A stretch of 27,949 nucleotides of DNA from a virus, in IMG/VR virus record IMGVR_UViG_3300028498_000045, positions 1-27,949 of that record. One strand, given 5' to 3'. Both the position numbers and the translations under genes were made by a program. Positions 8,578 to 12,650 of the stretch are shown one piece after another. Position 1 is the first letter of the stretch. The number at the start of each line of letters is the position of its first letter. The notes beneath the pieces were generated by a model. It saw nothing but the letters and a program-made list of their open reading frames with translations, searched no databases and was not told the DNA's origin.

Positions 8578-8910
8578 ATGAATACTACCTCTGCCCAATC
8601 TTTGGGTGCTGTGGGTCAGCGTACCGAGAAGACGGACGCAGATGCAATTGAGAGGGTTATCCGCGATGCCTGCCGCGCAGGTGCAAAGGATATCTCAGGG
8701 CGGGAGATCCAGGCAGTGCTACGTGCCACCCGCCATGAAGGGCATGGGATGAGTGACAGCGCAATGGAGGCCGGCAGCATTTCGGCGCGGGTTACTAAAT
8801 TGGTAACAGCGGGCCGGGTGCTGCGCGCTGCTGAGTCACGCAAATGCACGGTGACGCAGCGGGATATCTTGCCGCTGTCGATGCCGATGGTGCAGGGGCG
8901 GCTGGTATGA
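8578..8910 (+). CDS. Hypothetical early protein upstream of the replication initiator
   Basis: This 110-aa protein has a helical region DADAIERVIRDACRAGAKDISGREIQAVLRAT and SISARVTKLVTAGRVLRAAESRKCTVT, which has the rhythm of a winged helix with a wing at the end. Its stop overlaps the start of the initiator gene (ATGA at 8907-8910), so the two are translated together. It may assist replication or regulate it; nothing in the sequence decides. Confidence 0.6.
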   Translation: MNTTSAQSLGAVGQRTEKTDADAIERVIRDACRAGAKDISGREIQAVLRATRHEGHGMSDSAMEAGSISARVTKLVTAGRVLRAAESRKCTVTQRDILPLSMPMVQGRLV

Positions 8911-9767
8911 GCTTTGAGTCCGTGGCGTGGGCATTACCTCAGCCGGTCAGCGGCACAAAAAAGGTTTTGCTGATCGGTATTGCCAGCCATGCCGATAAGT
9001 ACGGTGATAACGCTTGGCCGTCTATCCCTACTTTGGCTGAGTACGCTTGCGTGAGTGAGCGCAATGTGCAGCATGCCTTGAATGCGTTGGTGGATGAGGG
9101 GTATGTGTTCCGCGACTTGAACGAGGGTGGCTCGCGCCGCGTGGCGGGTCATATGCGGCCCAATTTGTACCGCTTGAACATGCTTGGCAAGCCGGTGGTT
9201 TCGGTTGCCGATAAGCCCCTGTCTCCAGCATCACCCGGTGTCGGCAGCGACACCCCCCCGGTGTCGCCAGCATCACCCCCCCCGGTGTCGGTAGCGACAC
9301 CCCCCCCGGTGTCGCCAGCGACACCCGAATCTTCCATGGAACCATCCATAGAACCATCCAGTAAGAAGAAAGGCGCATGTGCGCCCACCTTGCCGGGTGT
9401 GCCGGATGGTGTGTTGCAGGATTTTCTAAAAATCCGGGCCGCCAAAAAAGCACCGTTGACTGAAACCGCCGTGCGGGGACTGCAGCGGGAAGCCGATAAG
9501 GCCGAGTTGACCCTGACGCAGGCGATTGAGGTGTGCTGTGAGCTGGGCTGGCTGGCTTTCAATGCGGAGTGGTATGCCCAGCGGCAGGCCAAAACTGCCG
9601 TTACCCAGGGTGGGGGTGCAGCAGTAGGCCAGCGGGCTGAAACGCCCTACCAGCGGTCGATGCGCGAGCGTGTCGCAGAGTTCTCGCCCTCGGTGGCACG
9701 CCGTGCACCAGGCCCTATTTTTCACACTTTGGAGGCTGAATATGCCGCTGTCCGCCGAATCGATTGA
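8907..9767 (+). CDS. Lambda O-like replication initiator
   Basis: This 286-aa protein starts at the ATG overlapping the previous stop. An N-terminal winged-helix domain (about 1-100) contains WPSIPTLAEYACVSERNVQHALNALVDEGYV, the helix-turn-helix typical of phage O-type initiators. A Pro/Ser/Val linker (about 108-142) is encoded by the iteron array, and a helical C-terminal domain (about 150-286) would contact the helicase loader. The gene for the probable partner follows and overlaps. The iterons inside the gene mirror the lambda origin inside O, which strongly supports the assignment. Confidence 0.8.
   Translation: MSFESVAWALPQPVSGTKKVLLIGIASHADKYGDNAWPSIPTLAEYACVSERNVQHALNALVDEGYVFRDLNEGGSRRVAGHMRPNLYRLNMLGKPVVSVADKPLSPASPGVGSDTPPVSPASPPPVSVATPPPVSPATPESSMEPSIEPSSKKKGACAPTLPGVPDGVLQDFLKIRAAKKAPLTETAVRGLQREADKAELTLTQAIEVCCELGWLAFNAEWYAQRQAKTAVTQGGGAAVGQRAETPYQRSMRERVAEFSPSVARRAPGPIFHTLEAEYAAVRRID
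9218..9325 (+). repeat. Iteron array inside the initiator gene; probable replication origin
   Basis: Four 18-bp dyads start at 9237, 9260, 9284 and 9308: GGTGTCG-N4-CGACACC, three of them perfect and the second with two mismatches in its right arm. A degenerate copy lies at 9218-9235. They are spaced by C-runs with a period of 23-24 bp. The following 50 bases (9326-9380) are less GC-rich (TTCCATGGAACCATCC and similar). Four dyad iterons plus an adjacent AT-richer stretch inside an O gene is the plan of the lambda origin. The first copy is read in another frame than the later ones. Confidence 0.7.
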
Positions 9768-10200
9768 GTGGTTGTTTGGCCGCCTGACTCTGACCTACGG
9801 GCGTGACTTTTTGGCCCGCTACGAGGGGCAGGATGCGCAGGCCGTGGCGGGATCGTGGGCCCATGAGTTGGCCGCTTTTGCGCCCTGCATGCATGTGCTG
9901 GACTGGGCGCTGGAGCATTTGCCAGTCAAGCCACCAAGTGTGCTGGAGTTCCGGGCGCTGTGCCGGGCCGCGCCTGCAGCCGTGTTGCCGCGGCTTGCTG
10001 CACCTGCCGCTGATCCTGCGCGGGCTGCTGTAGCACTGAGGCGGCTGGCCGAGTTAACCGCCCAAATTAGAAGAACCCCCCAGGGTAATGCGCGTGACTG
10101 GGCGGATCAAAAGCTGGCAGAGCATGCGGCGGGAAAGCCGGTTTCACTGTTCTCCCTCAAGTCTGCCCGGCAGGTGGTGCGCATGCGGGCGGTCGCGTGA
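9742..10200 (+). CDS. Putative replication partner protein (position of lambda P)
   Basis: This 152-aa protein starts at the ATG with GGAGG 7 bases upstream; it overlaps the end of the initiator gene. MPLSAESIEWLFGRLTLTYGRDFLARYEG and the following helices resemble short phage proteins placed directly behind O-like initiators. There is no Walker motif, so it is not a helicase or a DnaC-type ATPase. A helicase-recruiting or priming role is inferred from position. The stop overlaps the next start (GTGA). Confidence 0.65.
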   Translation: MPLSAESIEWLFGRLTLTYGRDFLARYEGQDAQAVAGSWAHELAAFAPCMHVLDWALEHLPVKPPSVLEFRALCRAAPAAVLPRLAAPAADPARAAVALRRLAELTAQIRRTPQGNARDWADQKLAEHAAGKPVSLFSLKSARQVVRMRAVA

Positions 10201-11387: not shown

Positions 11388-12650
11388 ATGAATTACCAGG
11401 TCGCAAAATCCATTGTCCAGCAGCCTATTGCTGCCCTGCTTCCTTATGCGCGCAACAGCCGCACCCACTCGGAGGAACAGGTGACGCAAATCGCCGCTTC
11501 GATTAAGGAATTCGGTTTTACCAATCCCGTTCTGGTGGATGACGCAGGCGGCATCGTCGCCGGCCATGGTCGCGTACTGGCGGCAAAAAAGATAGGCTTG
11601 CTTGAGGTACCCACCATCAACGTCGGCTGGATGAGCGAAGGCCAGCGGCGTGCCTATGTGATCGCCGACAACCAGCTCGCGCTCAACGCCGGCTGGGATG
11701 AGGCGGTGTTGGCCTCTGAAGTCGCTTGGCTGGCCGAGCAAAACTTCGACACCGACCTGCTCGGCTTTGATGTAGATTATTTGGACGGCTTGCTTGCTGG
11801 TGATGACGAGGATGGCGGCGGCCTGACAGACCCCGACGAGGTGCCCGCAATCCAGGAAACCCCAATCAGTAAGTTGGGCGACGTATGGCTGCTGGGCAAG
11901 CACCGGGTCATGTGTGGGGATTCAACCAGTATCGAGACGGTTGAAACATTGATGGCGGGAAATCTTGCCGACCAGCTGATCACAGACCCCCCCTACAACG
12001 TCGCTTATGTAGGCAAGACAAAAGATGCAATGAAAATTCAGAACGACAGCATGGACGATGAGAGCTTCCGTCAATTCCTGCGGGATGCGTTCGTTGCAGC
12101 AGATGCAGTTATGAAATCTGGCGCAGTGTTCTACATCTGGCACGCCGATTCGGAAGGCTACAACTTCCGTGGAGCCTGCAAAGACTCGGGCTGGAAAGTC
12201 CGACAGTGTTTGATCTGGAAGAAGCAGACGCTGGTCATGGGTCGCCAGGACTACCACTGGAAGCATGAGCCTTGCCTGTACGGGTGGAAGGATGGCGCCG
12301 CGCACCTGTGGGCCACTGACCGAAAGCAGACCACGATACTGGAGTTCGACCGCCCCTCGCGCAGCACGCTGCATCCGACCATGAAGCCGGTTGACCTGAT
12401 CGAATATCAGGTTTTAAACAACACCAAGGGCCAAGACGTTGTGCTTGACCTCTTTGGAGGCGGCGGCTCAACCCTGATCGCATGCGAGAAATCTGGCCGA
12501 TATGCCCGTTTGATGGAATTGGACCCCAAGTATGTGGACGTGATCGTCCGCCGCTGGTGCGAGTTCACCGGCAAGCAAGCCACGCACGCAGCCACTGGCG
12601 CGACGTTCGCAGAGGTTGAGGCCAACAGCGCCATGGCGGTAGCAGAGTGA
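11388..12650 (+). CDS. ParB-like domain fused to a beta-class DNA N6-adenine methyltransferase
   Basis: This 420-aa protein has an N-terminal ParB/Srx-like nuclease domain (about 10-110: PYARNSRTHSEEQVTQIAASIKEFGFTNPVLVD, GHGRVLAAKKIG, VIADNQLALNAGWD). A methyltransferase domain follows with DPPYN at 200-204 (motif IV, catalytic) and FGGGGST at 356-362 (SAM binding). Motif IV before motif I is the beta-class order. It probably methylates adenines in phage DNA to protect it from host restriction, or tunes packaging or regulation; no partner endonuclease is present. AGGA stands 7 bases before the ATG. Such fusions are common beside phage terminase genes. Confidence 0.9.
   Translation: MNYQVAKSIVQQPIAALLPYARNSRTHSEEQVTQIAASIKEFGFTNPVLVDDAGGIVAGHGRVLAAKKIGLLEVPTINVGWMSEGQRRAYVIADNQLALNAGWDEAVLASEVAWLAEQNFDTDLLGFDVDYLDGLLAGDDEDGGGLTDPDEVPAIQETPISKLGDVWLLGKHRVMCGDSTSIETVETLMAGNLADQLITDPPYNVAYVGKTKDAMKIQNDSMDDESFRQFLRDAFVAADAVMKSGAVFYIWHADSEGYNFRGACKDSGWKVRQCLIWKKQTLVMGRQDYHWKHEPCLYGWKDGAAHLWATDRKQTTILEFDRPSRSTLHPTMKPVDLIEYQVLNNTKGQDVVLDLFGGGGSTLIACEKSGRYARLMELDPKYVDVIVRRWCEFTGKQATHAATGATFAEVEANSAMAVAE

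What the first reader, a model, noticed from the sequence alone, without database searches (positions are those of the whole stretch)
9218..9325. Iteron-type replication origin inside the O-like gene
Four 18-bp dyads GGTGTCG-N4-CGACACC (9237, 9260, 9284, 9308; three perfect), plus a degenerate copy at 9218, are regularly spaced and lie inside the gene for a winged-helix initiator, next to a less GC-rich stretch. Lambda has the same plan, with four iterons in gene O. The repeat also codes the protein linker, so DNA and protein constraints overlap.
Basis: partly seen in the sequence, partly recalled or inferred. Interest (0 to 1): 0.72.

Follow-up and report, generated by a model that had tools for sequence, protein, structure and literature searches.

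The report
Phage replication origin inside initiator gene
A bacterial virus carries its DNA-copying start site inside the gene for the protein that recognises it, and across more than a hundred related viruses the DNA repeats and the protein's reading helix change together, which suggests a readable recognition code.

Summary
The repeats are real and exactly where stated: three perfect and one two-mismatch GGTGTCG-N4-CGACACC dyads, plus a weak fifth copy, inside an O-like initiator gene (8907-9767; HTH_36 winged helix, PHROG 678). Codon choice does not explain them (0 of 10,000 synonymous versions). Among 123 homologous phage genes collected by protein similarity alone, 73 carry such dyads against 2.9% of codon-permuted controls. 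In 61 of the 73, dyads fall in more than one reading frame, so the constraint acts on DNA. The dyad sequence differs between homologs and covaries with the initiator's recognition helix. Lys56 always goes with T at half-site position 5 (20/20), and 20 of 20 informative closest-relative pairs switch together (p=2e-6). This links the encoded protein to the dyads without any experiment. It looks like the unwinding element. Best reading: a lambda-plan intragenic origin built on a different initiator family. The new parts are the helix-iteron code and the frame-independent 12-mer array. Binding and replication activity remain untested.

The parts
8907..9767 (+). O-like replication initiator gene (286 aa, P0001)
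   Evidence: PF13730 HTH_36 E=3.2e-10; PHROG 678 'replication initiation O-like' E=4.4e-25 over residues 6-254
8907..9194 (+). winged-helix DNA-binding domain, residues 1-96
   Evidence: AlphaFold2 on 45 homologous domains, mean pLDDT 93; nearest PDB folds are winged helices including the DnaD N-terminal domain
9057..9098 (+). recognition helix, residues 51-64; residues 50, 53, 55 and 56 (at and near its start) covary with the dyad half-site
9218..9235 (.). degenerate dyad (CCTGTCTCCAGCATCACC), position conserved
   Evidence: 5 mismatches, but 19 bp before the next dyad, the usual first spacing in homologs
9237..9254 (.). dyad/iteron 1, perfect; read in codon phase 0
9260..9277 (.). dyad/iteron 2, two mismatches; codon phase 2
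9284..9301 (.). dyad/iteron 3, perfect; codon phase 2
9308..9325 (.). dyad/iteron 4, perfect; codon phase 2
9326..9373 (.). low-stability stretch (candidate DNA-unwinding element)
   Evidence: GC 42-54%, mean nearest-neighbour stability dip at the same place as in homologs
9327..9335 (.). 12-mer repeat copy 1, degenerate (GAATCTTCC)
   Evidence: same offset from the last dyad as the first AACC[N]TCC copy in homologs
9339..9347 (.). 12-mer repeat copy 2 (GAACCATCC)
9351..9359 (.). 12-mer repeat copy 3 (GAACCATCC)
9393..9611 (+). C-terminal domain, residues 163-235, also found in phage proteins with other N-terminal domains (helicase-recruitment role inferred)
   Evidence: PHROG 12556 and 6451 match residues 164-234; the same stretch is present in Pseudomonas U7, Limnohabitans DC33, cta1H496 and zth2-2 proteins
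9742..10200 (+). downstream partner gene (152 aa), candidate P-like helicase loader
   Evidence: weak tblastn to genes next to O-like genes in three phages, one annotated 'replication protein P'; no family match

Best explanation
The segment 9218-9373 is the phage's theta-type replication origin, embedded in the gene of its own initiator. Inferred steps: the initiator's winged-helix domain binds the dyads (probably one dimer per dyad, with the recognition helix in each GGTGTCG half). Four or five occupied dyads, 19-24 bp apart, wrap the DNA and open the adjacent low-stability 11-12-bp repeat array. The C-terminal domain, with the product of the next gene, loads the host helicase there. Shown by sequence statistics: the dyads and the 12-mer array are constrained as DNA, in a fixed order and register, and the dyad half-site covaries with recognition-helix residues of the same gene product. 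Not shown: binding, melting, helicase loading and origin activity.
For: Gene identity: HTH_36 and O-like PHROGs. Chance and codon bias excluded in the window. Homologs chosen by protein only: 133 dyad-like sites in 55.7 kb of initiator CDS against 23 in 185 kb of flanks; 73 of 123 genes score at least 7 against 2.9% of codon-permuted genes, and 61 of 73 have dyads in more than one reading frame, with spacings 24, 19 and 23. The reverse direction: scanning 2.9 million viral contigs with the paired dyad alone gave 25 loci, 23 of them with the dyads in an initiator-like ORF; nine representatives, diverse ones included, all match replication-initiation PHROGs. Recognition: the top residue-base pair of all is residue 56 with half-site position 5, z=11.3; residues 50, 53, 55 and 56 stand out; Lys56 with T5 in 20/20, Arg56 with A/G5 in 26/30; in 23 disjoint closest-relative pairs differing at position 5, Lys56 follows in 20 and opposes in 0 (p=1.9e-6, best of 103 tests). 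Residues 51-64 form the recognition helix in a pLDDT 93 model. Unwinding element: AACC[A/G]TCC 118 copies against 17 (maximum 24) after codon permutation, 22 of 31 multi-copy arrays in more than one frame, first copy 2 bp after the last dyad in 33 of 45 genes, stability dip at the same place.
Against: No binding or replication data were found for any of these phages. About a quarter of homologs (34 of 123 below score 6) lack a confident dyad array; some are truncated or carry variant or half-site repeats, but true absence in some is possible. There is no GC-skew inflection at the locus. The partner is only weakly P-like. The window's own residue 56 is His, which is rare, so its pairing with T5 rests on one example. 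The domain tree is poorly supported, so the covariation test uses closest pairs rather than a robust tree.
Confidence: 0.84

Rival explanations
1. The dyads are operators for autoregulation or a partition (centromere-like) site bound by the same protein, not the replication origin.
For: The covariation shows recognition, not what binding is for. Intragenic binding could block transcription, and a downstream gene carries a ParB-like domain.
Against: The sites lie about 330 bp into the coding region and there is no copy at a promoter. A conserved low-stability repeat array follows at a fixed 2-bp distance, as expected of an origin. The carrier protein is initiator-like over its length.
Confidence: 0.1
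2. The repeats are only a proline/threonine-rich linker produced by tandem duplication of codons, with no DNA function.
For: Linker repeats expand easily, and C7-C8 runs between copies suggest slippage.
Against: Dyads are read in different frames in the same gene in 61 of 73 homologs. Synonymous permutation destroys them. The half-site covaries with a distant protein helix.
Confidence: 0.02
3. The dyads act as RNA hairpins (7-bp stem, 4-nt loop) in the initiator mRNA, for example for translational control.
For: Each dyad can form a stem-loop; the palindromes alone do not distinguish DNA from RNA function.
Against: The same half-site is kept in all copies of one gene but changes between genes together with the recognition helix, which an RNA stem does not require.
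Confidence: 0.04

Closest known systems
Bacteriophage lambda ori in gene O (also Stx-phage ori)
   Same: Inverted-repeat iterons in the middle of the initiator gene, adjacent A+T-rich region, initiator N-terminus followed by iteron-coded linker and C-terminal part; lambda iterons are 19-bp imperfect inverted repeats bound by O dimers (PMC7466680; PMC5043065); ori mutations delete an iteron or part of the AT-rich region within O (PMC6022878).
   Different: DNA-binding domain is HTH_36, not Phage_rep_O, in Pfam; dyad sequence differs; the unwinding region is an 11-12-bp GAACC[A/G]TCC array read in all frames; the partner gene matches no P family.
PLE/ICP1 RepA_N origins (Vibrio cholerae satellite)
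   Same: Semi-palindromic iterons covary with the initiator's DNA-binding domain while the C-terminal domain is conserved (PMC8263062).
   Different: Noncoding origin, a different domain family, and swapping of whole modules rather than single-residue helix changes.
Theta plasmids with iterons (RK2, pSC101 type)
   Same: Initiator-bound repeat array next to short A+T-rich repeats such as 13-mers (PMC5043065).
   Different: Here the dyads are palindromes inside the initiator gene, and the initiator is a single HTH_36 domain plus a phage C-terminal domain.
Arthrobacter phage Decurro gp23, Jamun gp43 and Curtobacterium phage Root gp22
   Same: Named isolates of the same domain family; Root carries four perfect GGTGACG dyads followed by two AACCATCC copies, Jamun four AACCGTCC copies in three frames.
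   Different: Annotated only as helix-turn-helix DNA-binding proteins, with no origin feature in the records read; different half-sites.

Membership tests
lambda-type intragenic origin (by plan) | initiator-binding inverted repeats inside the initiator gene, between DNA-binding and C-terminal parts | tested here: met
   dyads at codons 104-140 of 286, between the modelled winged helix and the C-terminal domain
lambda-type intragenic origin (by plan) | adjacent A+T-rich / low-stability region | tested here: met
   9326-9373, GC 42-54%; same mean dip over 70 homologs
lambda-type intragenic origin (by plan) | repeats recognised by the encoded initiator | tested here: inconclusive
lambda-type intragenic origin (by plan) | downstream gene encodes a P-type helicase loader | tested here: inconclusive
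   weak similarity to a gene annotated 'replication protein P' in the same position; no family match
lambda-type intragenic origin (by plan) | supports autonomous replication; transcriptional activation | not testable with these tools
   needs experiment
Phage_rep_O family (lambda O homologs) | Pfam Phage_rep_O domain | tested here: not met
   only HTH_36 passes its cut-off; PHROG 678 calls it O-like
HTH_36 winged-helix phage initiators | HTH_36 domain above the gathering score, in an initiator PHROG | tested here: met
   40.1 bits against cut-off 25; PHROGs 678, 8540, 1032
Iteron plasmid origins | direct-repeat iterons in a noncoding region next to rep | tested here: not met
   repeats are palindromic and lie inside the gene

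The most novel reading that the evidence does not exclude
HTH_36 phage initiators form a large family of self-contained origin genes in which a simple recognition code (for example Lys56 with T5, Arg56 with A/G5, Asn53 with TCG) couples the helix to the iterons coded by the same gene, so that replicon specificity switches by a few matched changes; a second conserved 11-12-bp array, read in all three frames, is the family's unwinding element.
Probability: 0.65. Interest if true: 0.7.

Novelty: new variant of a known kind. Interest (0 to 1): 0.58.

Why it matters
It gives many natural protein-site pairs in which a replication initiator and its origin sit in one gene and change together. How origin specificity evolves without losing replication then becomes testable with single substitutions. 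It also supplies a sequence rule for finding origins in phages annotated only as carrying a 'helix-turn-helix protein'.

Tried and rejected
Single-sequence scans with P0001 found no relatives; profile scans and the dyad pattern did. Blastn against named phages found nothing. The maximum-likelihood tree of the domain had too few supported branches for a tree-based test, so disjoint closest pairs were used. A GGCGGTG paired-dyad scan found nothing. The GGTGACG scan gave six loci, all with the dyads in winged-helix-like ORFs; the three new ones carry Arg56 as predicted, but Arg is common there, so this is a weak test. GC skew gave no origin signal. A literature search for GAACCATCC gave only incidental matches among those listed. 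No paper describing this origin family was found in the open-access library searched. BLASTP of the partner against a P-like loader gave nothing convincing.

Full report
OBSERVATION. The window is a 27,949-bp IMG/VR virus record. The dyads GGTGTCG-N4-CGACACC are at 9237, 9260, 9284 and 9308; three are perfect and the second has two mismatches. No other perfect site exists in the window. With up to 3 mismatches there are 10 matches against 1.63 expected, and none of 100 shuffles reaches 10. The fifth copy at 9218 is poor in sequence. Its 19-bp distance to the next dyad is, however, the commonest first spacing in homologs (43 of 73 genes), so it is probably a decayed site.

GENE. The dyads lie in 8907-9767 (286 aa). 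Residues 15-67 match HTH_36, and residues 6-254 match PHROG 678, replication initiation O-like. A model of residues 1-99, made from 45 homologous domains, has pLDDT 93: helices at 40-47 and 51-64 and a wing at 67-70/87-90. Its best PDB matches are generic winged helices, among them the DnaD N-terminal domain. Residues 163-235 form a C-terminal domain that is also found in phage proteins with other N-terminal domains, next to genes weakly similar to the window's 9742-10200 gene, one of them annotated replication protein P. The role of this pair in helicase loading is inferred.

DNA OR PROTEIN CONSTRAINT? In the window the first dyad is in codon phase 0 and the others in phase 2. Synonymous recoding gave three perfect plus one near-perfect site in 0 of 10,000 trials. 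I collected homologs by protein similarity alone (the first-found DNA-motif loci were added), leaving 123 unique genes. A dyad caller that does not assume the sequence finds arrays at score 7 or more in 73 genes against 2.9% of codon-permuted genes. Spacings are 24, 19 and 23 bp, and 61 of 73 genes have dyads in more than one reading frame. In the 80 genes found strictly by protein, dyad-like sites are 133 in 55.7 kb of coding sequence against 23 in 185 kb of flanks. The constraint is therefore on DNA. In the other direction, paired GGTGTCR dyads in 2.9 million viral contigs gave 25 loci. By my reading of the ORFs, 23 have the dyads inside an initiator-like gene; the exceptions are a locus with no ORF there and a collagen-like repeat gene. 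Nine representatives, covering the diverse ones, all match replication-initiation PHROGs.

WHO BINDS? The half-site varies between homologs: GGTGTCG, GGTGACG, GGTGTCC, GGTGGCG, GGCGGTG, GGGGATG and others. In 59 non-redundant genes the strongest association between any of the first 100 or so residues and any half-site base is residue 56 with position 5 (z=11.3). The other variable outliers are residues 50, 53 and 55, all at or near the start of the recognition helix. Lys56 occurs with T5 in 20 of 20 and Arg56 with A or G in 26 of 30. In 23 disjoint pairs of closest relatives that differ at position 5 (identity outside the helix 52-91%), Lys56 follows in 20, opposes in 0 and is uninformative in 3 (p=1.9e-6, best of 103 column-letter tests). 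Asn53 follows in 14 and opposes in 0. Shared ancestry would affect all columns; the helix stands out. A few low-variation columns (residues 37, 42) also score highly because of a small clade, and residue 17 reaches p=0.001 in the pair test. The domain tree itself is too weakly supported for a formal tree test.

SECOND ELEMENT. Directly after the dyads comes GAACC[A/G]TCC, repeated every 11 or 12 bp. In the window there are copies at 9327 (degenerate), 9339 and 9351. In the 123 genes there are 118 AACC[A/G]TCC copies against 17 (maximum 24) after codon permutation; 22 of 31 multi-copy arrays use more than one frame, and the first copy is 2 bp after the last dyad in 33 of 45 genes. GC falls from about 65% to 46-49% at this place in homologs and to 42-54% in the window. 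This is the expected behaviour of a DNA-unwinding element adjoining an iteron array (PMC5043065). Named relatives show the same layout without an origin annotation in the records read: Curtobacterium phage Root, Arthrobacter phages Jamun and Decurro. Pseudomonas U7 and Aggregatibacter S1249 have other linker repeats followed by looser GAACC-type repeats.

MECHANISM. Best supported: initiator dimers occupy the dyads, wrap the DNA and open the neighbouring 12-mer array, and the C-terminal domain with the next gene's product loads the helicase. Recognition is supported by covariation; the rest is inferred from lambda and iteron plasmids. A role in autoregulation or partition cannot be excluded, because covariation shows binding and not its purpose.

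KNOWN OR NEW. The plan is lambda's: inverted-repeat iterons and an AT-rich region inside the initiator gene. Covariation of origin and initiator domain is known at the module level for PLE satellites. What I did not find described, in an incomplete open-access library, is the residue-level helix-iteron code inside single genes, the frame-independent 12-mer array, and the origin assignment for this HTH_36 family. Hence a new variant of a known kind.

Noticed in passing
window 9251-9307: Runs of seven or eight C separate the dyads; a one-base slip would change the reading frame of the initiator, so these are possible slippage or sequencing-error sites.
   Followed up: no
window 11388-12650: ParB-like N-terminal domain fused to an N6/N4 DNA methyltransferase (PHROG 498), a few genes downstream of the initiator.
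   Followed up: no
window 1-27949: Cumulative GC skew rises to about 12.9 kb and then falls steadily; the turn lies near the terminase genes, not at the putative origin.
   Followed up: partly
L005, L009, L012, L013, L015, L016, L022, L024, L028: Much more distant winged-helix phage initiators also carry paired GGTGTCR dyads in their linker, some with helices of the type S-x-x-[ST]-V-I-R, suggesting a different solution for the same site.
   Followed up: partly
L312 about 2755-2875; L316 about 1765-1870: Pseudomonas phage U7 and Aggregatibacter phage S1249 O-like genes have other linker repeats (GGGGTAGTAGC...; GGTATGCCAGCAGATAGCAC x4) followed by degenerate GAACC-type repeats.
   Followed up: partly
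L031 7398-7439: A Dehalococcoidia gene whose product resembles ribosomal protein L25 codes EGVEGDTEEGVEGDT repeats that match the dyad pattern by chance; an example of a false positive.
   Followed up: no
L007 5481-5534: Two GGTGTCAACATTGACACC-type dyads outside any long ORF in a 35.6-kb viral contig; a possible noncoding version of the origin or an operator.
   Followed up: no
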